DNA of 64,000 nt, from assembly GCA_018268595.1 (NCBI GenBank), contig JAFDWH010000009.1, positions 372,001 through 436,000 of the forward strand, in the 5' to 3' direction. Below the pieces are notes generated by a model. It made no database searches and was not told the DNA's origin. It saw nothing but the letters and a program-made list of their open reading frames with translations. Position numbers and translations under genes: made by a program. Shown piece by piece: positions 6,509 through 61,651 of the stretch. The number at the start of each line of letters is the position of its first letter. Position 1 is the first letter of the stretch. The DNA comes from Actinomycetota bacterium. GTDB taxonomy: Bacteria; Actinomycetota; Thermoleophilia; Solirubrobacterales; Solirubrobacteraceae.

Positions 6509-8953
6509 CTAGAGCCCGCGCAGCGCCGGCAGCGGCTGGCGCTGCGAGAGCACCTCTGCGAACAGGTCGCCGTGCTGCGCCACCCGCGCGAGCACGGCGG
6601 CGTGCTCGAAGCGCAGCAGGGCCGGGTCGCCGGCCTGCAGGCACGCCTCGACCTCGTCCCACGTGACCGGGGTCGAGACGGTCGGGCGCTCCTTCGCGCG
6701 CAGCGAGTAGACCGCGACGGTCGTCTTGTGCTCGTCGTTCTGGGACCAGTCGATCAGCACCTTGCCCTCGCGCTCGCCGCCCTTTCTGCGCATGTCGGAG
6801 ACGACCAGCTCGGGCCGCTGCCGCTCGAGCAGCGCCGCGACCGCGTGCGCGAACGGCTTCGTCTGCTCGTAGCGCACGTCCGGGTCGTTGAGCGGGACGT
6901 ACACCTGCATCCCCTTCGAGCCCGACGTCTTCGCCACCGCGCGCAGGCCGAGCTGCTCGAACAGCGCGCGCAGCGCGAGCGCAACCTCGCAGCACTCGAC
7001 GACCGTGGCCGGCGGGCCAGGGTCGAGGTCGAACGCGAGCGTCGTCGGGCGCTCGATCTCGTCCGCTCTGGAGAGCGACGGATGCAGCTCGAGGTCGGCG
7101 AGGTTCGCGAGCCACACGAGCGTCGGCAGGTCGTCGCAGAGCGTGTACTCGATGTCGCGTCTGCTGTGGCGGCTGTAGACGGTGACCGTCCGCACCCACT
7201 CGGGCCGGTGTCTCGGCGACTGCTTCTCGTAGAAGAATCTGCCCTCGACGCCGTCGGGGTAGCGCTTGAGCGTGAGCGGGCGGTCGCGCAGGTGCGGCAG
7301 CAGCGCCGGCGCGACGGCGACGCAGTAGTCGACGAGGTCGCGCTTCGTGAAGCCGGCCTGCGGATACAGCACCTTGTCGGGGTTGCTGAGTCTGACGGTG
7401 CGGCCCTCGACGTCCAGCTCGAGGCCGCCGCGCACGCGGCGCTCGGCCAGCGCCGGGCCGGGCGACGGCGAGGTCGGCTCGGGCGGCGGCGGCTCGACGC
7501 GCTCGCGCACGACCTCGGCGGCCGGCTTGTCGTTGCGCAAGCCCTCGTAGCGCGGATGCCGCAGGCGGCCGTCTCTCGTCCACTCGCCGAACTCGACCTC
7601 GGCGACGAGCCGCGGCTCGACGAAGTGCGCGCCTTTCGCCGGCTGGCGGCCGGCGAACGGAGAGCTTCTCCGCGCGAGCGGTCTCAGCAACGCGCCGAGC
7701 CGCTCCAGCTCCGCTTCGTCGAAGCCGGTGCCGACCTTGCCGGCGTACTTCAGCTCGCCGCTGCGCGGGTCGTGGACGCCCAGCTCGAGCGCGCCGAGCC
7801 GCCCGGCGCGCGCGCCTCTCCCCTCCGTCCAGCCGCCGATCACCAGCTCCTGGCGCTGCGCGTTCTTGATCTTCAACCAGCTCCCGTCGCGGCGCCCGGG
7901 CGCGTAGCGCGAGTCGAGCCGCTTGGCGACGACGCCCTCCAGGCCCTGCTCGCGCGTGGCCGCCAGCAGCGCGCTGCCGTTCCCCACGTGGTGGGCCGGC
8001 ACGCGCCAGTGCTCGCCGTCGAGGCCGAGCGCTTGCAGGTGCTTGCGGCGGTCGACGTACGGCAGCCCCAGCAGCGAGTGGCCGTCGAGCCACAGCAGGT
8101 CGAAGATCACGTACGTCACCGGCGTCTCGGCCGCGCGCCGTCTGACGGCCGCCTCGCCGCGCAGGTGGATGCGCGGCTGCAGCGCCTGGAAGCTCGGCCT
8201 GCCCTGCTCGTCGAACGCGACGATCTCGCCGTCGAGGATCGCCGCGTGCGAGCCGAACGCGCGATTGAGCGGGCGCAGCTCCGGATAGGCGGCGGAGACG
8301 TCGTTGCCGTTGCGCGTGACGAGTCTGAGGCGGCCCGGCTCGGAGTGCGCGATCGCGCGCACGCCGTCCCACTTGACCTCGAACGCCCAGCGCTGCTCGT
8401 CGGCCGGCATCGTCGAGAGGCGCGCGAGCATCGGCTCGACGAAGTCGGGCATCTGCTCGGCGCTCGCGTCGGCGGGCGGGTCCATGCGGTGGATCATCCA
8501 GTCGCGCTCGGATCTGCCGGCGCGGAACAGCGCGTAGCGGCCGTTGAGGCGCTCGCCCTCGAAGGCCACGATCACTCTCTCCGGCAGCCACTTCTCGCAC
8601 GTGTAGGTGCCGCTGTCCCAGATCGTCACCTCGCCGGCGCCGTACTGGCCGGCCGGGATGGTGCCGTGGAAGTCGAGGTACTCGAGCGGGTGGTCCTCGA
8701 CGTGCACGGCCTTGCGGTTGCGTCTGGGGTCGTCCGGGATGCCGTTCGGGATCGCCCACGAGACGAGCACGCCGTCGCGCTCGAGCCGCAGATCCCAATG
8801 CAGCCGGCGGGCGTGATGCTCGTGCACGACGAAGCGGCCGCCCGGCTGCGCGGGCGCGGCGCCGTCGCCGCCCCCGTGCGGTTCGGGCGTGGCGTCGAAG
8901 CGGCGCTTTCCGCGGTACTCGGCCAGTCCCCTCGGCATGGATGGTTCGGACAT
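6509..8953 (-). CDS. ligD: ATP-dependent DNA ligase LigD (3'-phosphoesterase, ligase, polymerase)
   Basis: About 814-residue multifunctional enzyme of bacterial non-homologous end joining. Domain order is phosphoesterase (about 40-160: HHARRLHWDLRLE, VHVEDHPLEY), ligase (about 170-480, nucleotidyl-accepting Lys194 in FEVKWDGVRA) and primase-polymerase (about 510-800, metal-binding Asp pair in FDLDPG). It seals double-strand breaks together with Ku, which is not in this window. ATG 8953 is used; GTG 8977 and ATG 8938 are alternatives. Order PE-Lig-Pol differs from mycobacterial Pol-PE-Lig. It diverges from the toxin-antitoxin pair. Confidence 0.93.
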   Translation of the reverse strand: MSEPSMPRGLAEYRGKRRFDATPEPHGGGDGAAPAQPGGRFVVHEHHARRLHWDLRLERDGVLVSWAIPNGIPDDPRRNRKAVHVEDHPLEYLDFHGTIPAGQYGAGEVTIWDSGTYTCEKWLPERVIVAFEGERLNGRYALFRAGRSERDWMIHRMDPPADASAEQMPDFVEPMLARLSTMPADEQRWAFEVKWDGVRAIAHSEPGRLRLVTRNGNDVSAAYPELRPLNRAFGSHAAILDGEIVAFDEQGRPSFQALQPRIHLRGEAAVRRRAAETPVTYVIFDLLWLDGHSLLGLPYVDRRKHLQALGLDGEHWRVPAHHVGNGSALLAATREQGLEGVVAKRLDSRYAPGRRDGSWLKIKNAQRQELVIGGWTEGRGARAGRLGALELGVHDPRSGELKYAGKVGTGFDEAELERLGALLRPLARRSSPFAGRQPAKGAHFVEPRLVAEVEFGEWTRDGRLRHPRYEGLRNDKPAAEVVRERVEPPPPEPTSPSPGPALAERRVRGGLELDVEGRTVRLSNPDKVLYPQAGFTKRDLVDYCVAVAPALLPHLRDRPLTLKRYPDGVEGRFFYEKQSPRHRPEWVRTVTVYSRHSRRDIEYTLCDDLPTLVWLANLADLELHPSLSRADEIERPTTLAFDLDPGPPATVVECCEVALALRALFEQLGLRAVAKTSGSKGMQVYVPLNDPDVRYEQTKPFAHAVAALLERQRPELVVSDMRRKGGEREGKVLIDWSQNDEHKTTVAVYSLRAKERPTVSTPVTWDEVEACLQAGDPALLRFEHAAVLARVAQHGDLFAEVLSQRQPLPALRGL

Positions 8954-8983
8954 ACCCGTCGAGCGGGACGATGCCACGGCTAT

Positions 8984-9014
8984 GTTGACCAGGTCAAGCT
9001 GGTTGACCAGATCA
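8984..9014 (+). promoter_or_regulatory. Repeated dyad upstream of toxin-antitoxin operon
   Basis: GTTGACCAGGTCA (8984-8996) and GTTGACCAGATCA (9002-9014) are direct repeats 18 bases apart. The first contains a perfect palindrome TTGACC-A-GGTCAA. CTGGT/ACCAG arms (8999-9010) form a further dyad. Multiple sites just before the antitoxin ATG are typical of autoregulation by antitoxin and toxin-antitoxin complexes. Confidence 0.5.
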
Positions 9015-9027
9015 GTACACTTTGTGC

Positions 9028-9246
9028 ATGGAAGTCACCGTGCAAGAGGCGAAGACGCAGCTCTCGCGCTTGCTGCGCCGCGTCGAGGCGGGCGAGTCGA
9101 TCACGATCCGCCGCGGGCGCGAGCCGGTCGCAATGCTCGTGCGCGCGCCGGCCAAGCCCGGACAGCGCCGGATCTGGGGCGACGTGAGCGGCGCGCTCGG
9201 GCCGGAGTTCGACGAGCTGCCCGACGACTTCGCCGGCTACGCGTGA
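9028..9246 (+). CDS. Antitoxin, Phd/YefM-like (VapB partner)
   Basis: 72-residue protein with the Phd/YefM-like N-terminal pattern MEVTVQEAKTQLSRLLRRVEAGESITIRRGREPVAMLV. This region normally forms the DNA-binding dimer, and the acidic C-terminal tail (FDELPDDFAGYA) would wrap the toxin. ATG 9028 is preferred to TTG 9022. The toxin gene begins inside its stop codon (GTGA), typical of a coupled type II toxin-antitoxin operon. Repeated dyads just upstream (8984-9014) are likely autoregulatory sites. Confidence 0.85.
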   Translation: MEVTVQEAKTQLSRLLRRVEAGESITIRRGREPVAMLVRAPAKPGQRRIWGDVSGALGPEFDELPDDFAGYA

Positions 9247-9623
9247 AGCGGCTGCTGCTCGACACGAACGTCGTCGTGTGGCTGCTGCTGGGCGACCGCG
9301 ACGCCGTATCCGCGGCGGCCGTGGATGCGCTGCTCGACGAGCGCAACGCCGTCTCGCTGAGCGCCGTCAGCGTGTGGGAGATCGCGATCAAGCGCTCGCT
9401 CGGCAAGCTCGAGATCGCGGCCGACTGGGCGCGCTCGCTCGCGCGGCTGGACTTCGACCCGCTCCCCGTCACAGGCGCGCACGCGCAGCAGGTCGAGCAG
9501 CTTCCGTGGCATCACCGCGACCCGTTCGACCGGCTGCTGATCGCGCAGGCCGCGCTCGAAGACCACGCGCTCGTCAGCGCCGATTCGCGGATGGCCGACT
9601 ACGACGTCGAGGTGGTCTGGTGA
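9243..9623 (+). CDS. PIN-domain toxin, VapC family
   Basis: 126-residue PIN domain, a Mg-dependent ribonuclease that usually cleaves tRNA or rRNA. The conserved acidic residues are visible: Asp7 in LLLDTN, Glu in SAVSVWEIAIK, Asp in DPFDRLLIAQA and Asp in LVSADSRM. The GTG start overlaps the antitoxin TGA, so translation is coupled. The length and the WHHRDPFDRLLIAQA motif match the VapC subgroup common in actinobacteria and cyanobacteria. The RNA target is unknown. Confidence 0.88.
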   Translation: MKRLLLDTNVVVWLLLGDRDAVSAAAVDALLDERNAVSLSAVSVWEIAIKRSLGKLEIAADWARSLARLDFDPLPVTGAHAQQVEQLPWHHRDPFDRLLIAQAALEDHALVSADSRMADYDVEVVW

Positions 9624-9651
9624 GCGCGGCGACCGGCGGCTGACCGGCGCC

Positions 9652-10956
9652 TCACACCACGCTCAGCACCAGCAACGCGCCGACCGACAGCGCGACGAGC
9701 GCGATCACGGCGGCGGTCGCGATCCGGTCCCAGCGGCCGAGCGCGTGTCTGCCCATCAGCTCGCGGTCGCGCGCGAGCGAGCGGATGAACGGCAGGATCG
9801 CGAGCAGCAGCACCGCGTTGAGCGCCTGCGAGAGGAACAGGATCGGCACGAGCGGCGCGCCCGGGATCAGCACGATCGCGGCGGCGAGCGCCATGCTCGC
9901 GATATAGGCGACGTAGAAGACGGGCGCGTCGCGGAAGCGGTCGTTGAGGTCGGCCGGGCGCTCGGCCGCCTCCGCGACCGAGTACGCCGTCGACAGCGGC
10001 ACGACCGCCGCCGCCAGCAGCGCGGCGCCGACGAAGCCGAGCCCGAACAGCGTCTGCGCGGCCGAGCCGGCGAGCGGCGCGAGCGCGCGCGCCGCGTCGG
10101 CCGCGTCCTTCACCGAGACGCCCTGCTCGTGCAGCGTCGCCGCGCACGCGACGACGACGAAGAAGCCGATCACGCCGGTCAGCACCGCGCCGGTGATGAC
10201 GTCGACGCGCTCGAAGCCGAGGTCGCGCACGGACAGCCGCTTGTCGACCGCGTAGGACTGCATGAACGCGAGCCCCCAGGGCGCGAGCGTGGTGCCGAGC
10301 GTGGCGACGACGACGAGCAGGCCGTGGCGCGTGCCGGGCAGGTACGGCACGACCAGCCCGTGCGCGGCGGCGCCCCAGTCGGGGTGCGCGAGGAAGCCGG
10401 AGATCACGTACGCGGCGAAGATCGCGGAGAGCGCGAGCAGCACGTGCTCGACCCCGCGGAACGAGCCGCGCAGCACGAGCAGGCCGACCGCGACCGCCGC
10501 CAGCGGCACCGACACGTAGCGCGAGGTGCCGGCGAGCACCTCCATGCCGGCCGCGACGCCGGCCAGCTCGGCGCAGATCGTGCCGACGTTCGCGACCACG
10601 AGCGCGCTCAGCGCGAAGGCGGCGGCGCGCTGGCCGTGGCGCTCGCGCACGAGCCGCATCAGCCCCTTGCCGGTGACGACGCCGGTGCGGGCGGCCAGCT
10701 CGTGGAAGACGATCAGCGCGACCGTCGAGAGCGCCAGCACCCACAGCAGCTCGTAGCCGTAGTCGGCGCCGAGGATCGAGTAGGTCGTGATGCCGGCCGG
10801 GTCGTCGTCGGACAGGCCCGCGAGCAGGCCGGGCCCGACGACCGCCAGCAGCGCCAGCAGGCGCACGCGGTGGCCGCGCCGCCGCGCAAGCGCGCGGTGC
10901 GGGTGACGGACCGCGAGGTGCGGCGGGTGCGGTCGGCGGGGGACGCGGCGGGCCAT
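9652..10956 (-). CDS. NRAMP-family divalent metal transporter, non-canonical metal site
   Basis: 434-residue polytopic protein with about 11 membrane helices and overall NRAMP/MntH resemblance (GPGLLAGLSDDDPAGITTYS in helix 1, ADYGYELLWVLALST after it). The canonical helix-1 DPGN motif is DPAG followed by Ile, and the helix-6 MPH motif is MQSY. Metal-liganding Asn, Met-Pro-His contacts are therefore changed and Mn/Fe selectivity may be lost; related NRAMP relatives move Mg or other ions. The basic N-terminus is long (about 35 residues). ATG 10956 fits the start of coding-like sequence. It stands alone and is convergent with the vapC gene. Confidence 0.8.
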   Translation of the reverse strand: MARRVPRRPHPPHLAVRHPHRALARRRGHRVRLLALLAVVGPGLLAGLSDDDPAGITTYSILGADYGYELLWVLALSTVALIVFHELAARTGVVTGKGLMRLVRERHGQRAAAFALSALVVANVGTICAELAGVAAGMEVLAGTSRYVSVPLAAVAVGLLVLRGSFRGVEHVLLALSAIFAAYVISGFLAHPDWGAAAHGLVVPYLPGTRHGLLVVVATLGTTLAPWGLAFMQSYAVDKRLSVRDLGFERVDVITGAVLTGVIGFFVVVACAATLHEQGVSVKDAADAARALAPLAGSAAQTLFGLGFVGAALLAAAVVPLSTAYSVAEAAERPADLNDRFRDAPVFYVAYIASMALAAAIVLIPGAPLVPILFLSQALNAVLLLAILPFIRSLARDRELMGRHALGRWDRIATAAVIALVALSVGALLVLSVV

Positions 10957-54529: not shown

Positions 54530-56082
54530 GCTTCGCGAACGAGCCGCTGCTGGAGCTGCGCCGCGCGTGGGTGCGCGACGGGCTCGAGGACGCGCTGCGC
54601 GCGCTCGACGCCGAGCTGCCGCTGCACGTGCCGGTGCTGATCGACGGCGCCACGCGCGACGCGCCGGACCTCGCCTCGACCGACCCTGGCGCGCCGGAGC
54701 GCGTCGTCGCCGCCGCGACGCGCGCGACGCCCACCGAGGTGGACGACGCGGTGCGCGCCGCGAGCGCGGCGCAGGCGGCGTGGGCCGCGCGCCGCGCCGC
54801 CGCGCGGGCGGCGGTCCTCGTCCGCGCCGCCGGGCTGCTGCGCGAGCGGCGCGCGCGCCTGGCCGCGCTCGCCGTGCGCGAGTGCGCGAAGCCGTGGGCG
54901 GAGGCCGACGCCGACGTCTGCGAGGCGATCGACTTCCTCACCTACTACGCCGCCGACGCGGTGCGGCTCGAGCGCGGCGAGGAGCTCGTGCAGCTGCCCG
55001 GCGAGCGCAACGAGCTGCGCTACCGCCCGCGCGGCGTCGTCGCGGTCGTCGCGCCGTGGAACTTCCCGTTCGCGATCGCGCTCGGGATGACCGCGGCCGC
55101 GCTCGCGACCGGCAACGCGGTCGTGCTCAAGCCGGCCGAGCAGAGCCCCGGCTGCGCTTTCGAGCTCGTGCGCGCGCTGCACGAGGCGGGCGTCCCGGCC
55201 GGCGCGCTCGCGCTGCTGCCGGGCGAGGGCGACGTCGGCGCCGCGCTCGTGGCGCACGCGGGCGTGCACGTGATCGCGTTCACCGGCTCCTCCGCCGTCG
55301 GCCAGCAGATCCTGCGCGTCGCCGCCGACGTGCGTCCCGGCCAGCGCCACCTCAAGCACGTCGTCGCCGAGATGGGCGGCAAGAACTGCGTGCTCGTGGA
55401 CGCCGACGCCGACCTCGACGACGCCGTCCCGGCCGTCGCCTACTCGGCCTTCGGCTTCGCCGGCCAGAAGTGCTCCGCCTGCTCGCGCGTGCTCGTGCAC
55501 GAGGCGATCGCAGCGCCGTTCGCGGAGCGCCTGCGCGGCCTGCTCGACACGCTCGTGGTCGACCAGGCAACGCGCTTCGGCGTCGACGTGCCGCCGCTGA
55601 TCGAGCGCTCCGCGCAGGAGCGGATCGCGGACGCGCTCGCGCAGGCGGCGGCCGTTGGGGCGACCGTCGCGCGCGGCGCGGCCGGCCCCGACGAGGGCTG
55701 GTTCGCCGCGCCGGCGATCGTGACGGACGTCGCGGCCGACGCGCCGCTGCTCTCGACCGAGCTGTTCGGCCCGGTCGTGACGGTCGAGCCCGTCCCCGAC
55801 CTGCAGGCGGCGCTGGCGCGCGTCGAGGCGCTGCCGTTCGGCCTCACCGGCGGGATCTTCTCGCGCAACCCGGCGCGCGTGCGCGAGCTGACCTGGAAGC
55901 TGCCCGTCGGCAACGTCTACGTCAACCGCCACATCACCGGCGCGACCGTCGCGCGCCAGCCGTTCGGCGGCACCCGCCTGTCCGGCGGCGGGCCGAAGGC
56001 CGGCGGCCCCGGCTACCTGCACCACTTCGTCGAGAGCGTCGTCGTGTCGGAGAACACGACGCGCCACGGGCTGGTCGTCTAG
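54526..56082 (+). CDS. L-glutamate gamma-semialdehyde (P5C) dehydrogenase
   Basis: 518-residue aldehyde dehydrogenase that completes proline catabolism to glutamate. Motifs: VVAPWNFPFAIALGMTAAAL, AFTGSSAVGQQIL, catalytic Glu in VVAEMGGKNCVLVD, catalytic Cys in FGFAGQKCSACSR and ELFGPVVTVEPV. The pathway intermediate can be channelled from the adjacent proline dehydrogenase. Its TAG overlaps the stop codon of the convergent acidic protein (CTAG). Confidence 0.95.
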   Translation: MSFANEPLLELRRAWVRDGLEDALRALDAELPLHVPVLIDGATRDAPDLASTDPGAPERVVAAATRATPTEVDDAVRAASAAQAAWAARRAAARAAVLVRAAGLLRERRARLAALAVRECAKPWAEADADVCEAIDFLTYYAADAVRLERGEELVQLPGERNELRYRPRGVVAVVAPWNFPFAIALGMTAAALATGNAVVLKPAEQSPGCAFELVRALHEAGVPAGALALLPGEGDVGAALVAHAGVHVIAFTGSSAVGQQILRVAADVRPGQRHLKHVVAEMGGKNCVLVDADADLDDAVPAVAYSAFGFAGQKCSACSRVLVHEAIAAPFAERLRGLLDTLVVDQATRFGVDVPPLIERSAQERIADALAQAAAVGATVARGAAGPDEGWFAAPAIVTDVAADAPLLSTELFGPVVTVEPVPDLQAALARVEALPFGLTGGIFSRNPARVRELTWKLPVGNVYVNRHITGATVARQPFGGTRLSGGGPKAGGPGYLHHFVESVVVSENTTRHGLVV

Positions 56083-56657
56083 CCGCGGCGAGCCGTTCGC
56101 GGTCTGGCTCTTCTGCGGGGTCTGCTGGGCGGGCGCGGCGGCGAGGCTCTGCGTCTCCGCGCTCTGGGCGGCTCCGGCTCCTCCTCGGCCTCCGGCTCCT
56201 CCTCCTCTTCGTCCTCCTCGTCCTCGTACTCGTCGTCCGCCTCGGCCTCCGGCTCCTCCTCCTCTTCGTCCTCCTCGTCCTCGTACTCGTCGTCCGCCTC
56301 GGCCTCGGGCTCCTCGTCCTCGTCCTCCTCGTACTCCTCGTCCTCTTCGTCCTCGTAGTCCTCCTCGGCCTCGGCCTCGGGCTCCTCGTACTCTTCCTCG
56401 TCCTCGTACTCGTCGTCCTCGTACTCGTCGTCCTCTGCCGGCGGCTCCTCCGACTCCTCGTCCTGGGCGCCCAGCCGCTCGCCGATCAGGCGGCGGGCGG
56501 GACCGACCGTGGCACGTCCCGCGATCGCGAGCGCCGCGCCAGCAGCGACGGCACGCGCCGGAGTGAGGAGGTGCTTGTGCTTGCTTCTCCCGCCCTTGAT
56601 GTCCTCGAGCGCGGACTCGGCGGCAGCGTTGAGCATCTTTCCTACGTCGATGGCCAT
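56079..56657 (-). CDS. Extremely acidic repeat protein beside gas vesicle cluster
   Basis: 192-residue protein. The first 70 residues look globular (MAIDVGKMLNAAAESALED, KHKHLLTPARAVAAGAALAIAG, GPARRLIGERLG) with one possible membrane helix. Residues about 75-165 are almost pure Glu/Asp with Tyr and Ala, including two near-exact 19-residue repeats; the final 25 residues are Arg/Pro-rich. It follows a GGAG ribosome-binding site and diverges from the gas vesicle genes. The charge polarity (acidic middle, basic tail) suggests a disordered, ion- or protein-binding function. Function is unknown. Confidence 0.75.
   Translation of the reverse strand: MAIDVGKMLNAAAESALEDIKGGRSKHKHLLTPARAVAAGAALAIAGRATVGPARRLIGERLGAQDEESEEPPAEDDEYEDDEYEDEEEYEEPEAEAEEDYEDEEDEEYEEDEDEEPEAEADDEYEDEEDEEEEEPEAEADDEYEDEEDEEEEEPEAEEEPEPPRARRRRASPPRPPSRPRRRARPRTARRG
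56194..56306 (-). repeat. Two 57-bp tandem repeats in the acidic protein gene
   Basis: Copies begin at 56194 and 56251 (period 57 bases, 19 residues: PEAEADDEYEDEEDEEEEE on the coding strand). More divergent Glu/Asp codons extend to about 56450. The copies are nearly identical, so expansion is recent. Confidence 0.85.
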
Positions 56658-56730
56658 GGTGTCTCCGTCCCGTTCGATCGTGCCGTCGGAGTCACACGGG
56701 TACCCGTCCGCAGCCCGCGTTACCCACATC

Positions 56731-56755
56731 GGTTGCCCGCATCCCGACCGGGTAG
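56731..56755 (+). promoter_or_regulatory. Possible SigB/SigF-type promoter for gas vesicle genes
   Basis: GGTTGC (56731-56736) and GGGTAG (56750-56755) are 13 bases apart and resemble actinobacterial stress-sigma promoters (GTTT...GGGTA). The start would lie about 75 bases before the first gvp ATG. This is a short-motif match, and GC-rich DNA gives such hits by chance. Confidence 0.35.
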
Positions 56756-56836
56756 TGCTGAGCGCAGCGACCGAACCGACCGGGCCCGCGGGGGACTCGA
56801 CGGAACCGGCGGCCGAGGTGAGTCGAGGTGAAGTGA

Positions 56837-57232
56837 ATGAGTGTGCAACCGAGCCCCGGTGGGGCGCTCGAGCGCAGCCAGGAGAGCTCGCTCGCGGACG
56901 TCGTCAACACGATTCTCGAGAAGGGGGTCGTGATCGACGTGTTCGCGCGCGTCTCGCTCGTCGGCATCGAGCTGCTGCGGGCCGACGTCCGCGTGGTGAT
57001 CGCGAGCGTCGACACCTACCTCCGCTTCGCGGAGCGGGTCGGCCGGCTCCAGCTGGGCTCCCAGGAACCGCGCGACCTCACGGAGGTCGCCGAGGGCCTC
57101 ACCGAGGGAGGCGCCAAGGCCAAGAGCAAGGGCGCGCTGGAGGCTGGCGCGGAGAAGCTCGGCGACGCGCTCGGCAGAGGCGACGACGAGCAGCAGCCCG
57201 CGAGACACAACCGCAGGAGACGGCGCAGATGA
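56837..57232 (+). CDS. gvpA: Gas vesicle structural protein GvpA (GvpA/GvpJ family)
   Basis: 131-residue protein. Residues 16-72 are the conserved gas vesicle core ([45 protein letters not shown]), which assembles into the rib wall in true GvpA. The C-terminal extension (about 75-131), including [17 protein letters not shown] and an Arg-rich end, is like that of streptomycete GvpA. A GAGGTGA ribosome-binding site precedes ATG 56837. It is the first gene of a cluster of about nine gvp genes. A GvpJ role rather than the main structural one cannot be excluded. Confidence 0.88.
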
Positions 57233-57954
57233 GCGCGGAGCAGCAGGACCGACGGCGGCAGGAGCAGGAGGGCAACGTCTGGGTCTACGGCGTCGTCCCC
57301 GCGCACGCGGCCATGAGGGAGCTCGAGCGCCGCGGCGACCGGCTCCCCGAGGTGTGGGTCGTCGAGGCCGGCGATCTCGGCGCGATCGCGGGGCCGGCGC
57401 CGGCCCAGGACGAGCAGGGGACGCGCGACCAGGCGCTCGCGCACGCCCGCGTGCTCGAGGCGGCGGTCGTCGACGCGCCGGTGGTCCCGTTCCGCTTCGG
57501 GATCATGGTGCCGGAGACGGAGGACGTGGGCGACGAGCTGCTGCTGCCCCAGCACGACGAGCTCGCGCAGCTGCTCGCGCGGGTCGAGGGCCGCATCCAG
57601 ATGACGCTGAAGGCGTACTACGACGAGGACACGCTGCTGCGTGAGATCGTCGAGCGCGAGCCGGAGATCGCGCGCCTGCGCGAGGAGCTGCGCGACATGC
57701 CCGAGGACGAGTCGCACGCCGCGCAGGTGCGGCTCGGCGAGCTCGTGAGCGCTGCGGTCGACCAGGCGCGCGAGCGCGACGCCGCCGAGCTGCTCGAGCA
57801 GCTCCAGCCGGTCGCGGTCTCCGCCGCGACGGACCCGCTCGAGCGCGAGTACATGGTGCTCAACGCCCCGCCCAGCGGCTCCAAGAGCTGGAGGAGGCGC
57901 GCGAGCGGGGCGAGCTGTCGCCCGAGGAGGCCGCGCGACGTCAGGGCGAGCTGA
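57229..57954 (+). pseudogene. gvpF: Gas vesicle GvpF/GvpL family protein, C-terminus lost (fused to gvpG remnant)
   Basis: Residues 1-213 are a normal GvpF/L protein (VWVYGVVPAH, VVPFRFGIMVPE, EREYMVLNA). After MVLNA at about 57867 the expected tail (of about 45 residues, ending GPxPPYxF) is missing, and the frame continues as 28 unrelated residues. The DNA after the junction encodes, in another frame, the C-terminal half of GvpG (57864-58025). So a deletion of about 250 bases (gvpF end plus gvpG start) is inferred. It overlaps gvpA by ATGA. An assembly error is the main alternative. Confidence 0.75.
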
Positions 57955-58025
57955 TCGAACAGGTGGCGCAGCCGAGCGTCGAGGCGACGCCGGCCGAGCC
58001 GCAGGAGGACGCGCACGATGGCTGA
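57864..58025 (+). pseudogene. gvpG: Remnant of gvpG
   Basis: Frame 3 of this stretch reads QRLQELEEARERGELSPEE followed by AARRQGELIEQV, matching the helical end of GvpG. No start codon or N-terminal GvpG half (about 40 residues) exists before it, because the upstream DNA is the interior of gvpF. The fragment ends in a TGA that overlaps the gvpO start (ATGGCTGA). GvpG normally helps gas vesicle assembly. Confidence 0.75.
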
Positions 58026-58377
58026 GGAGAGACCCCGGCGCAGACGCAGAGCGAGCGGCGGCGGGCGGTCGGACGGGGCGCCGCGCAGACGCACGGCGAA
58101 GCGGGCGTCCGGCGTCGAGCTGGCGAAGCGCGCGAAGGACCAGCTCGCCGAGATCACCGGGCTGGCGGCGGAGAGCGTGAGCGCGCTGGAGCGCGCCGAG
58201 GACGGGTCGTGGTTCGTGACCGTCGACCTGCTCGAGCTCTCGCGCATCCCCGAGACCGACGACGTGCTCGGCAGCTACGAGGCGCAGCTCGACGCGGACG
58301 GAGAGCTGCTCAGCTACAAGCGGCTGCGCCGCTACCCGCGCAGCCAGGCGCAGGAGTCGAGCAACAACTCCCGATGA
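58018..58377 (+). CDS. gvpO: Gas vesicle protein GvpO
   Basis: 119-residue protein. The first 30 residues are Arg-rich and probably disordered. The GvpO core (about 30-110) includes ELAKRAKDQLAEITGLAAESV, DGSWFVTVDLLELSRIPETDDVLGSYEAQLD and LLSYKRLRRYPRS. GvpO is thought to regulate or assist gas vesicle formation in haloarchaea and actinobacteria. A GGAGGA ribosome-binding site precedes ATG 58018, within the gvpG remnant. The next gene overlaps by ATGA. Confidence 0.9.
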   Translation: MAEERPRRRRRASGGGRSDGAPRRRTAKRASGVELAKRAKDQLAEITGLAAESVSALERAEDGSWFVTVDLLELSRIPETDDVLGSYEAQLDADGELLSYKRLRRYPRSQAQESSNNSR

Positions 58378-58727
58378 GCGGCATCGTCCCCTCGAGCAGC
58401 TCGGGCCCCGCGCCCGTCTCGTCCGCGCTCACCGGCCCGTCGGACGGCGCGGCCAACCTCGCCGACGTGCTCGAGCGCGTGCTCGACAAGGGCATCGTGA
58501 TCGTCGGCGACATCCGCGTGAACCTGCTCGACATCGAGCTGCTCACGATCAAGCTGCGGCTCGTCATCGCCGGCGTCGACACCGCCCGCCGCATCGGCAT
58601 CACGTGGTGGGAGCACGATCCGTGGCTGACCGGCGAGGACGACGACCGCGGCGCGCTCGCCGACCGCGTCAGACGGCTCGAGCGCCGGCTCGAGGCCGGC
58701 TCCTCCTCGGAGGGCGACGATGCGTGA
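58374..58727 (+). CDS. gvpJ: Gas vesicle protein GvpJ
   Basis: 117-residue GvpA-related minor protein. Core residues about 26-85 read ANLADVLERVLDKGIVIVGDI, then NLLDIELLTIKLRLVIAGVDTARRIG and ITWWEHDPWL, close to streptomycete GvpJ. Such proteins may shape vesicle ends and nucleate assembly. The Ser/Pro-rich first 25 residues and charged end are typical. Coupled to neighbours by short overlaps. Confidence 0.88.
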   Translation: MSGIVPSSSSGPAPVSSALTGPSDGAANLADVLERVLDKGIVIVGDIRVNLLDIELLTIKLRLVIAGVDTARRIGITWWEHDPWLTGEDDDRGALADRVRRLERRLEAGSSSEGDDA

Positions 58728-59544
58728 CGAGCCGTCCGCCTGCTACGTGTACTGCGTCGTGCCCGCGGCGCAGGTCCCGCCGCTCGACGACCTCGCCGGC
58801 GTCGACCCGGGGCTCCCGGTCGGGTCGCTCACGGCGGGCGAGCTGTGCGCCGTCACGAGCCGCGTGCGCCTCGCCGAGTTCGGCGAGGACGCGCTGCGAC
58901 GCAACCTCGAGGACCTCGCCTGGGTCGAGCGGACGGCGCGCGCGCACGACGCCGTGCTGGCCCGCGCGCTGTCGGCCGGCGCCGTCGTCCCGCTGCGGCT
59001 GTGCACGATCTTCGGCGACGCCGACCACGTCCGTGCGATGCTCGAGCGCGAGCGCGAGCGGCTGCACGACGCGCTCGAGCGTCTGCGCGGTCGCAGCGAG
59101 TGGAGCGTGAAGGCGCGCGCCGACCTGCGGCGGCCCGCGCCGGCCGAGTCCGGCGGCGCTGCACCGGAGCAGACGCCCGGACGCGCGTTCTTCGCCCGCA
59201 AGCAGGGCGATCGCGAGCTGCGCGAGCGGGCGGCCGCGCGCGCGACGGCGGCGGCGCAGGAGATCCACGACGGGCTGCGCGCGGAGGCGGTCGACGCGCT
59301 GCTGCTGCCGCCGCAGGACCCCGCCCTCTCCGGACGCAGCGGCACGACGCTGCTGAACGGCGCCTACCTCGTCGAGCGGGCGCGCGAGCCGGCGTTCACG
59401 GCGGCCGTCGCGCAGCTCGCCGCGCGCCACCGCGACGGCGGCGTCGAGGTCGACGTCAGCGGCCCGTGGGCTCCGTACAACTTCGTCGCGACCGAACCGC
59501 AGCGCGATGAGCGACGAGCGGCAGCGCCTGCCCAGCCAGCGTGA
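58720..59544 (+). CDS. gvpL: Gas vesicle GvpL/GvpF family protein
   Basis: 274-residue complete member. N-terminal CYVYCVVPA, central PLRLCTIFGDADHVRAML and the C-terminal signature SGPWAPYNFV (about 247-256) are all present, so it is an intact reference for judging the truncated copy at 57229. Function is in vesicle assembly as an accessory protein. It overlaps gvpJ by 8 bases and gvpS by 38. Confidence 0.9.
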   Translation: MRDEPSACYVYCVVPAAQVPPLDDLAGVDPGLPVGSLTAGELCAVTSRVRLAEFGEDALRRNLEDLAWVERTARAHDAVLARALSAGAVVPLRLCTIFGDADHVRAMLERERERLHDALERLRGRSEWSVKARADLRRPAPAESGGAAPEQTPGRAFFARKQGDRELRERAAARATAAAQEIHDGLRAEAVDALLLPPQDPALSGRSGTTLLNGAYLVERAREPAFTAAVAQLAARHRDGGVEVDVSGPWAPYNFVATEPQRDERRAAAPAQPA

Positions 59545-59728
59545 GGTCGCGCTCGTCGAGCTGCTCGACCGCGCGCTCGGCGCCGGCGTCGTGATCGCCG
59601 GCGACGTCACGCTGACGCTCGCCGACATCGACCTCGTCGACCTGAGCCTGCGGCTCGTCGTCGGCTCGGTGCCGACGCTGCGCGGGCCGGCGGAGCAGCG
59701 CGCGCAGGACCCGGAGGGCGCGTCGTGA
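59507..59728 (+). CDS. gvpS: Gas vesicle protein GvpS (GvpA-related)
   Basis: 73-residue short GvpA-family protein with core VALVELLDRALGAGVVIAGD and VTLTLADIDLVDLSLRLVVG, matching actinobacterial GvpS. Its ATG lies inside the end of gvpL (38-base overlap), and its stop overlaps the next gene by 4 bases. It probably serves as a minor component or nucleator. Confidence 0.82.
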   Translation: MSDERQRLPSQREVALVELLDRALGAGVVIAGDVTLTLADIDLVDLSLRLVVGSVPTLRGPAEQRAQDPEGAS

Positions 59729-60387
59729 TCTACGCGTACGGGATCTGCGCCGCGACGGCGCCGCCGCTGCCGCCTACGTGCCGGGGCCTCGGCGGCGCGC
59801 GCGTCGGCGTGCTGCAGCGCGACGGGCTGGCCGCGGTCTACAGCCGCCACCGCACGCTGCGCCCCGAGCCGACGCCCGCGGAGGTGCTCGCGCACGAGCG
59901 GATCGTGGAGGCCGTCATGGCGCGCGGTCCCGTGCTGCCGCTGCGCTTCGGGACGCAGCTGGCGACGGAGGAGCGGCTCGCGACCGCGCTCGAGGAGCGC
60001 CGCGAGGAGCTGCTGCGCACGCTCGCGCGCGTGCGCGACCGTGTCGAGCTCGGCGTGCGCGCGCTGCCCGCCGTCGGGACGCCGCAGCGCGCCGGCGGGG
60101 AGCGCAGCGGTCGCGCCTACCTGCTCGCGCGAGCGGCGGAGCAGCAGCGCCGCGACCGCGCCGTCCACGACCTGCACGCGCCGCTCGCGCAGCTGGCGGC
60201 GGCGAGCGTCGTGCAGGCGCTGCCCGCGCCGCCGGCGCTGCTGGCCGCCGCGTACCTCGTGGACGCCGAGCGCGTCGCCGCCTTCCGCGCGCACGCCGCC
60301 GCGCTCGGCGCCGAGCACGGCGAGCTGCACGTCGTCGTGACCGGTCCGTGGCCGCCCTACAACTTCGCGACCGAGGGCGACGCGTGA
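59725..60387 (+). CDS. Gas vesicle GvpL/GvpF family protein (third copy)
   Basis: 220-residue complete member. IYAYGICAA at the start, VLPLRFGTQLATEERL in the middle and TGPWPPYNFATEGDA at the end are diagnostic. GTG start. It overlaps gvpS and gvpK by 4 bases each. With 57229 and 58720 it makes three GvpF/L proteins, which normally interact with GvpA during assembly. Confidence 0.9.
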   Translation: MIYAYGICAATAPPLPPTCRGLGGARVGVLQRDGLAAVYSRHRTLRPEPTPAEVLAHERIVEAVMARGPVLPLRFGTQLATEERLATALEERREELLRTLARVRDRVELGVRALPAVGTPQRAGGERSGRAYLLARAAEQQRRDRAVHDLHAPLAQLAAASVVQALPAPPALLAAAYLVDAERVAAFRAHAAALGAEHGELHVVVTGPWPPYNFATEGDA

Positions 60388-60593
60388 GAGTCGACGCCGA
60401 CGACGAGGACGTCGCGCGCGGGCTCGCGCAGCTCGTGCTGACGGTGATCGAGCTGTTGCGGCAGCTGATGGAGCGTCAGGCGATCCGTCGCGTCGAGGCC
60501 GGCGACCTCAGCGACGACCAGGGACTTCGGGCTGAGCGACGAGGACCTCAACCTCAACCTCGGCCCGCTCGGGAAGCTGCTGTGAGCGCGTAG
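60384..60593 (+). pseudogene. gvpK: gvpK with internal deletion and frameshift
   Basis: The frame starts as normal GvpK: DEDVARGLAQLVLTVIELLRQ, LMERQAIRRVEAGDLSDDQ. At about 60522 the expected helix of about 20 residues is missing and the frame shifts. The true GvpK ending (DFGLSDEDLNLNLGPLGKLL, stop at 60585) is encoded in another frame from 60523. The shifted product ends at 60593. GvpK is required or important for vesicles in other organisms, so function is doubtful. Assembly error is the alternative. Confidence 0.75.
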
Positions 60594-60631: not shown

Positions 60632-61018
60632 TCAGCGCAGGTAGATGTTGTCGAGCACCCGTTCGTCGGATGCGCGCTTTATCGCGATCCAGGCGTTGCC
60701 GCCGGTGAGTCTTCTTATCTTGATCGTGCAGCCGCGCTCCTGCCTGGCAGGGGCTGTGGCGCCTTCGCACGTCGTTTCCGGGAAAACGATTTCGTAGCGC
60801 GTCGGGAACGCGTTGCCGAGCCTCAACGTGATGCCTTCTAGCGCGCCGAATTGAACCGTGTCGAGCTTTATCGTTTCCGTCGCGCCGAACGTGAGCGTCT
60901 GAACCGTCGGCTTGGCCCCCGGCCCGTTGCAGCCGGTCACCGCCAGCGGGAAGGCCACGGCCGCGAGCGCCACTGCGAGCGCTCTCATGCCACGCATGGT
61001 CCACCCCCGGGGCCTCAT
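60632..61018 (-). CDS. Putative lipoprotein in low-GC patch
   Basis: 128-residue exported protein with a hydrophobic signal (ALAVALAAVAFPLAV) and a Cys after VTG that may be lipidated. The mature part (FGATETIKLDTVQFGALEG, ETTCEGATA, GCTIKIRRLTGG) is predicted beta-rich. ATG 61018 overlaps the upstream stop (ATGA); ATG 60997 with a GGGGGTGG site is an alternative. The codon use includes ATA, AGA and TTA-like AT-rich choices. A sampled 60-base line (60661-60720) has 35 G+C, versus 47 in a nearby gvp line. I do not recognise a family. Confidence 0.6.
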   Translation of the reverse strand: MRPRGWTMRGMRALAVALAAVAFPLAVTGCNGPGAKPTVQTLTFGATETIKLDTVQFGALEGITLRLGNAFPTRYEIVFPETTCEGATAPARQERGCTIKIRRLTGGNAWIAIKRASDERVLDNIYLR

Positions 61019-61632
61019 ATTAGCCTCACGATCATGCCGTTTTCGGATTCGATCACTTCGACTTCCCCGCTTCCGCTGGCCGTTCCGGACGCGGGACAGA
61101 AGCCGCCGGTGGAAGGGATTCTCGCCGCTTCTTCGGCTCTCACCGACGTGACGGTCCCTTCGGCGCTGAGGTTCGCTATCACCCTCGCCGGGCTTTCGGC
61201 GGTGGATCTGTATAGGCACGACACGCCGAGGATGGTGACCTGGAAGCTCATCCCGACCACGTCGAAGTTGATGCCGGTTATTCTCGGTAGCGTCCCGGTG
61301 AACGAGTTGTATTTGATGTGCCACGGCAGCGACGCGTCTAGCGGCGTCGGCCTCGCCCCTTCGGTGCCTCTGCACGTTTCCGTCGGCAGGAAGCCCGACG
61401 TCGCGTAGCCCACTAGCAGCCCTCTCGTCTTCGCGAACGTCGCGGCGTGCAGCGAGCCCGTTATGTACACGTGACACGCTGTCGATATGCCTTCGGTTCT
61501 GAAGGTGAGTTCTGACCAGTAGGCGTTGAACGTTCTTTCGTTGACGCTCAGCCTGCCGCCGAATGCGTTCCCGGCAGCGACGAGCATGACCGTCGCCGCA
61601 AGCGCCGCGACGGCCCCCTTCCGGAAGCTCAT
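61015..61632 (-). CDS. Putative secreted protein in low-GC patch
   Basis: 205-residue protein with a cleavable signal peptide (about 1-25, GAVAALAATVMLVAAGNAFG). The mature part has four cysteines (ACHVYIT, ETCRG, SCLYRS, GFCPAS) and is likely beta-rich. An AGG site lies before ATG 61632. It is coupled by ATGA to the lipoprotein gene. GC is about 57 percent in 61021-61080. I see no family; pairs of small secreted proteins like this can be surface or adhesion components, but nothing here proves it. Confidence 0.65.
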   Translation of the reverse strand: MSFRKGAVAALAATVMLVAAGNAFGGRLSVNERTFNAYWSELTFRTEGISTACHVYITGSLHAATFAKTRGLLVGYATSGFLPTETCRGTEGARPTPLDASLPWHIKYNSFTGTLPRITGINFDVVGMSFQVTILGVSCLYRSTAESPARVIANLSAEGTVTSVRAEEAARIPSTGGFCPASGTASGSGEVEVIESENGMIVRLI

Positions 61633-61651
61633 AGACCTGCCCTTTCCCCCG

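What the first reader, a model, noticed from the sequence alone, without database searches (positions are those of the whole stretch)
56079..56657. Highly acidic repeat protein diverging from gas vesicle genes
A Glu/Asp-rich repeat region with nearly identical 57-bp units and a basic tail sits back to back with the gvp operon. It might coat, buffer or organise vesicles, or bind cations. I know of no described function.
Basis: partly seen in the sequence, partly recalled or inferred. Interest (0 to 1): 0.6.

Follow-up and report, generated by a model that had tools for sequence, protein, structure and literature searches.

The report
Acidic gas-vesicle accessory protein
A real gene beside a bacterial gas-vesicle operon makes a protein with a short helical head, a very acidic disordered middle and a basic tail; relatives of it travel with gas-vesicle genes, and it probably acts as a charged tether or organiser of vesicle proteins, but that role has never been tested.

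Summary
A 192-aa gene (56079-56657, minus strand) diverges from a gvp operon. It encodes a 62-aa helical N-terminal module, a 98-aa tract of net charge -0.76 per residue with near-identical 57-bp repeats, and an Arg/Pro-rich tail.

The N-terminal module alone finds eight acidic-tailed homologues in the order (this genome included). All eight genomes are gvp-positive (25 of 232 are; p about 6e-9), and in six the gene adjoins gvpA. None appeared in 395 other genomes sampled across the phylum.

In seven of eight genomes the gene sits beside an SRPBCC (START-like) gene; here that gene is elsewhere. The two proteins share their N-terminal module. The SRPBCC tails are mostly basic where this acidic partner exists, and acidic or near-neutral where it does not.

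Streptomyces-type clusters hold an equivalent pair at the gvpY-gvpZ position: an acidic protein with a basic tail, then an SRPBCC protein with an acidic tail. Their GvpY N-terminus is unrelated.

The best explanation is a non-shell accessory whose charged tract binds basic tails (SRPBCC, GvpA, GvpO) to recruit or cluster vesicle proteins. This is inferred. It is a new variant of a known, functionally untested kind. Deletions in gvpF/gvpG and gvpK suggest this strain's own operon is damaged.

The parts
56079..56657 (-). acidic-repeat accessory protein gene, 192 aa (stop codon included)
56472..56657 (-). conserved N-terminal module, residues 1-62 (MAIDVGKMLNAAAESALEDI...RAVAAGAALAIAGRATVGPARRLIGERL); predicted two helices, 5-21 and 33-66, low confidence (pLDDT 64)
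56169..56462 (-). acidic tract, residues 66-163, 76% D/E, no basic residue
56199..56255 (-). 57-bp unit EPEAEADDEYEDEEDEEEE, copy 2
56256..56312 (-). 57-bp unit EPEAEADDEYEDEEDEEEE, copy 1
56328..56384 (-). diverged unit EPEAEAEEDYEDEEDEEYE
56082..56168 (-). Arg/Pro-rich basic tail, residues 164-192
56658..56836 (.). 179-bp divergent intergenic region; no sigma-70-type promoter match found
56837..57232 (+). gvpA (first GvpA-family gene) with Arg6 C-terminus
57229..57954 (+). gvpF/L 1, C-terminus lost; fused out of frame to the 3' part of gvpG
58018..58377 (+). gvpO with strongly basic N-terminus
58374..58727 (+). second GvpA-family gene (gvpJ-like)
58720..59544 (+). gvpF/L 2
59507..59728 (+). 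third GvpA-family gene (gvpS/M-like)
59725..60387 (+). gvpF/L 3
60384..60593 (+). gvpK, frameshifted by a 59-nt deletion relative to the same-genus homologue

Best explanation
It is a non-shell accessory protein of actinobacterial gas vesicles. Shown by computation: a conserved helical N-terminal module, a disordered-type acidic tract, a basic tail, linkage to gvp genes, and pairing with an SRPBCC protein that shares the same N-terminal module. Inferred: the helical module docks on a shared partner (the SRPBCC protein or an assembly protein), while the long acidic tract binds the basic low-complexity tails of the SRPBCC protein, of GvpA and of GvpO by multivalent charge attraction. This would concentrate gas-vesicle proteins at assembly sites and tether or cluster finished vesicles, a job like that of GvpU/GvpT in Bacillus megaterium. 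In clusters without this gene the acidic tract is often carried in cis by the SRPBCC protein.
For: N-terminal module finds 8 acidic-tailed proteins, all in gvp-positive genomes (25/232; hypergeometric p 5.9e-9); 6 adjoin gvpA; SRPBCC gene adjacent in 7 of 8. Shared N-terminal module with the SRPBCC protein: HHalign score 32.3 over 59 columns versus a maximum of 16.0 in 200 column shuffles and 20.6 in 200 block shuffles. SRPBCC tails: +6 to +24 in most loci with this gene's family, acidic or near-neutral (-48 to +6) in gvp loci of the order without it (Mann-Whitney p 0.004). Strongly acidic genes: 26 of 515 in gvp clusters plus 1.8 kb versus 0 of 318 in flanks (p 4e-6). GvpA ends in RRRRRR and GvpO begins with RPRRRRR. 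An acidic-plus-basic-tail protein followed by an SRPBCC gene recurs at the gvpY-gvpZ position in other actinobacteria. Precedent for clustering by non-essential GvpU/GvpT: PMC11445434.
Against: No binding, localisation or phenotype data exist. Two of eight homologues (G118, G125) lie in an SRPBCC pair away from gvp, and the family's N-terminal module also occurs without acidic tail in two genomes with no gvpF hit (G047, G219). In four clusters of other families GvpA tails are acidic (net -8 to -10) while acidic proteins are still present in at least two of them, so docking on GvpA tails cannot be universal. G081 and G137 break the basic-SRPBCC-tail pattern. Loci are related, so the p-values overstate independence.
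Confidence: 0.4

Rival explanations
1. Anti-aggregation accessory (entropic bristle): the N-terminal helices bind hydrophobic Gvp monomers and the acidic tract keeps them soluble or repels vesicles from one another, the opposite of clustering.
For: Weakly hydrophobic Ala/Gly helix, KD19 maximum 1.31; acidic tract with extreme net charge; chaperoning of GvpA is needed during assembly and is ascribed to GvpF/GvpG.
Against: Basic tails on this protein and on its partner favour attraction over repulsion; no shown contact with GvpA.
Confidence: 0.2
2. Role of the SRPBCC-acidic pair in a general envelope or stress process that gvp clusters have recruited; the link with vesicles is secondary.
For: G118, G125 and G047 carry the pair away from gvp; in this genome the SRPBCC gene sits at C13 with coiled and E3-binding-domain proteins, not gvp genes; G219 fuses the module to a different C-terminal part.
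Against: All eight acidic-tailed members are in gvp-positive genomes.
Confidence: 0.2
3. Nitrogen or arginine storage: Arg/Glu/Pro-rich Gvp proteins as reserve material, as proposed for Streptomyces under ArgR control.
For: Proposed in PMC5839063; composition rich in E, R, P.
Against: Asp/Glu-rich tract is poor in nitrogen; conserved N-terminal module and gene pairing are not needed for storage.
Confidence: 0.05
4. Cation (Ca2+, Mg2+) binding or buffering by the acidic tract.
For: High D/E density.
Against: No EF-hand or other metal motif found by Pfam; does not explain the basic tails.
Confidence: 0.07
5. Decaying gene in a dead gvp locus: the operon of this strain has lost function and the acidic gene is simply not yet lost.
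For: gvpF/gvpG fusion deletion and 59-nt frameshifting deletion in gvpK relative to G081; SRPBCC partner not in the cluster.
Against: The acidic gene itself is intact with a coding-type substitution pattern; the deletions could be assembly errors. This concerns this strain, not the family.
Confidence: 0.3

Closest known systems
Streptomyces GvpY (SCO6503/SCO0653 position)
   Same: Small N-terminal region with an Ala/Gly-rich helix, then long Glu/Asp-rich tract, then basic tail; next to an SRPBCC gene inside a gvp cluster. Assigned by gene order only.
   Different: N-terminal sequence unrelated (HHalign probability 0.3%); tail is Lys/Ala-rich, not Arg/Pro-rich; lies between gvpG and gvpJ, not divergent.
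SRPBCC gvp protein (Streptomyces GvpZ position; PF03364/PF10604)
   Same: In this order it shares the N-terminal module and often carries an acidic tail.
   Different: The window protein lacks the SRPBCC domain.
Bacillus megaterium GvpU/GvpT
   Same: Proposed job: non-essential spatial organisation of vesicles (PMC11445434).
   Different: No sequence relationship shown; no GvpU or GvpT sequence was compared directly, and no gvp family model matched.
GvpC
   Same: Repeat-bearing, non-GvpA gas-vesicle protein.
   Different: No Gas_vesicle_C match; 19-aa acidic low-complexity repeats, not amphipathic ~33-aa repeats (repeat length of GvpC from general knowledge).

Membership tests
Order-specific NT-acidic gvp accessory family (defined here) | 62-aa N-terminal module | tested here: met
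   E 2e-26 (window sequence is in the profile); pairwise G081 E 3e-13
Order-specific NT-acidic gvp accessory family (defined here) | acidic C-terminal tract | tested here: met
Order-specific NT-acidic gvp accessory family (defined here) | linkage to gvp genes | tested here: met
   6 of 8 adjacent, 8 of 8 genomes gvp-positive
Streptomyces GvpY | position beside the SRPBCC (GvpZ-position) gene in the gvp cluster | tested here: inconclusive
   true for 7 of 8 relatives, but the SRPBCC gene is elsewhere in the window's genome
Streptomyces GvpY | acidic tract plus basic tail | tested here: met
Streptomyces GvpY | homologous N-terminal domain | tested here: not met
   HHalign probability 0.3%
SRPBCC gvp protein (GvpZ position) | SRPBCC domain PF03364/PF10604 | tested here: not met
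SRPBCC gvp protein (GvpZ position) | shared N-terminal module of this order | tested here: met
GvpC | Gas_vesicle_C Pfam match | tested here: not met
   no match at E <= 1
GvpU/GvpT | sequence homology | not tested
   no reference sequence was compared; NCBIfam gave no gvp family
GvpU/GvpT | clusters vesicles in cells | not testable with these tools
   needs imaging

The most novel reading that the evidence does not exclude
Actinobacterial gas-vesicle clusters encode a two-protein, charge-complementary scaffold: an acidic-tract protein and an SRPBCC protein with a shared N-terminal docking module, where the acidic tract is carried either in cis or in trans. It forms a condensate-like compartment for vesicle assembly or clustering, evolved independently of GvpU.
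Probability: 0.2. Interest if true: 0.65.

Novelty: new variant of a known kind. Interest (0 to 1): 0.4.

Why it matters
Actinobacteria carry many gvp clusters whose purpose is unclear; disruption of them in Streptomyces did not change buoyancy (PMC5839063, citing van Keulen 2005). A conserved charged module found inside these clusters gives a concrete, testable handle on what they do, and candidate parts for controlling vesicle clustering in acoustic reporter systems.

Tried and rejected
Two genome-contig scans with the N-terminal module found no relatives, and the alignment was too weakly conserved for a scan, so organisms could not be named. The G038 hit is a chance match in a 604-aa antisense-type frame. 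Weak profile hits above E 1e-4 were not followed and are treated as chance. The single remote phylum hit, G396 (E 1.5e-5, inside an 823-aa frame), was not followed. Pfam/NCBIfam hits of the full protein (BUD22, Nop14, RNase E, SepX) match only the acidic low-complexity part and lie far below their cut-offs. Homology of the module with the GvpY N-terminus was tested and rejected. A transmembrane role for the Ala-rich helix is unlikely (hydropathy maximum 1.3). Literature searches for gas vesicle plus SRPBCC gave one paper with no connection between the two.

Full report
WHAT IS THERE. The gene 56079-56657 (-) is an intact ATG-started ORF of 192 codons with a ribosome-binding-type GGAG upstream. 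It has three parts: residues 1-62, a conserved module of near-neutral charge; residues 66-163, 55 Glu and 19 Asp of 98 residues; residues 164-192, an Arg/Pro-rich tail. Two 57-bp units are 98% identical and a third 84-86%, and the best in-frame 57-bp pair is identical, beyond codon-order shuffles (maximum 89.5%). This points to recent tandem duplication. It is by far the most acidic of the 462 ORFs of at least 60 aa in the window.

SURROUNDINGS. The plus strand from 56837 carries a gvp operon: GvpA-family, GvpF/L, GvpO, GvpA-family, GvpF/L, GvpA-family, GvpF/L, GvpK. The 179-bp gap is a divergent intergenic region. On the other side, the acidic gene's stop overlaps the stop of a convergent aldehyde-dehydrogenase-like ORF that ends at 56082 (the enzyme name is my reading of the sequence, not a database match).

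RELATIVES. Acidic low-complexity sequence makes whole-protein searches meaningless, so the N-terminal module was used alone. It found the same-genus genome G081 at E 3e-13 and further genomes. A profile of seven modules gave ten clear hits in 232 genomes of the order (E <= 6e-9). Eight have acidic tails: G000, G081, G058, G118, G125, G137, G223, G222. G047 has the module only (76 aa), and G219 has it at the front of a different protein. Sampling 396 genomes across the phylum, the window's own genome included, gave no other clear member, although 27 of them are gvp-positive.

ASSOCIATION WITH GVP. 25 of 232 genomes of the order have GvpF/L. All eight acidic-tailed members are in these (p 5.9e-9). 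Six lie next to the first gvpA: divergent in the window and G081, co-directional in G058, G137, G223 and G222. In G118 and G125 the gene is in a two-gene unit on a contig without gvp genes.

THE PARTNER. In nearly all complete gvp clusters of the order an SRPBCC (PF03364/PF10604) gene lies directly upstream of gvpA, and in seven of eight members the acidic gene is beside an SRPBCC gene. In the window's genome the only close SRPBCC homologue (73% identical to that of G081) is at another locus, C13:199018. The N-terminal modules of the acidic protein and of the SRPBCC protein are homologous: HHalign score 32.3 against shuffled maxima of 16.0 and 20.6. The reading is that the acidic protein is an SRPBCC-type protein without the SRPBCC domain, or the reverse.

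CHARGE. SRPBCC tails in loci of this family are basic in seven of nine cases (+6 to +24; C13 of the window genome and G047 are counted here); exceptions are G081 (-25, with its own acidic repeats) and G137 (-2, a 12-residue tail). In order clusters without the gene they are acidic or near-neutral (-48 to +6; Mann-Whitney p 0.004, uncorrected for relatedness). One of those values comes from a frame-broken SRPBCC gene split in two (G019). GvpA tails of the order end in basic Arg/Ser-rich sequence in most clusters, Arg6 in the window. Strongly acidic genes are concentrated in gvp clusters, 26/515 versus 0/318 in flanks. This suggests an acidic tract carried in cis or in trans to basic tails, but four clusters of other families have acidic GvpA tails, so the scheme is not universal.

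STREPTOMYCES-TYPE CLUSTERS. In the large-genome family f27, and in G603, an acidic gene with a basic Lys/Ala- or Arg-rich tail precedes an SRPBCC gene. In several f27 clusters the order is O-A-F-G-[acidic]-[SRPBCC]-J-L-S-K, which is the published S. coelicolor order with gvpY and gvpZ at those two places, both listed as hypothetical (PMC5839063); a review table leaves that place blank (PMC9501494). The identification with GvpY/GvpZ is by position only; the species of these genomes is hidden. The GvpY-position N-terminus is not homologous to the module here. So the window protein resembles GvpY in architecture and setting but is not shown to be GvpY.

MECHANISM. Shown: anatomy, linkage, partner homology, charge pattern. 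Inferred: docking through the helical module and multivalent charge attraction between acidic tract and basic tails, concentrating Gvp proteins or tethering vesicles. [quoted passage not shown]). The AlphaFold model of the module is two helices at low confidence (pLDDT 64), so it is weak support.

CAVEAT ON THIS STRAIN. Against G081, the window's gvpF1 lacks its C-terminus and runs into the 3' part of gvpG, and gvpK has a 59-nt deletion that shifts its frame. Either the operon is damaged or the assembly is. This does not affect the family-level result.

SCORES. New variant of a known but functionally untested kind; interest 0.4. The window's taxonomic placement is not given; an actinobacterial order such as Solirubrobacterales is my guess from the gvp organisation and sequence character, not a result.

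Noticed in passing
57860-58023: gvpF1 loses its C-terminus and is joined out of frame to the 3' part of gvpG, compared with the intact same-genus cluster in L038; true deletion or assembly error.
   Followed up: partly
60510-60590: gvpK carries a 59-nt internal deletion that shifts its frame relative to L038.
   Followed up: partly
L059:9584-13660: The genome's SRPBCC gene lies in a separate locus with two paralogous coiled proteins (one ending in an E3-binding domain); a similar locus with a module-only protein occurs in L086.
   Followed up: partly
L087:5903-6775: The N-terminal module is fused to an unrelated C-terminal part resembling DUF2382 stress proteins (resemblance from memory).
   Followed up: no
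60632-61640: Two small secreted-looking proteins on the minus strand, with codon usage that looks less GC-rich at third positions than the surroundings, just downstream of gvp; possibly acquired.
   Followed up: no
L098, L100, L101, L102: gvp clusters of other families with acidic rather than basic GvpA tails.
   Followed up: no
L101:5366-6403 and 8165-9994: Further acidic low-complexity proteins of different type inside a gvp cluster, sharing an EPVLDLEMGPVALDVLG-like segment.
   Followed up: no
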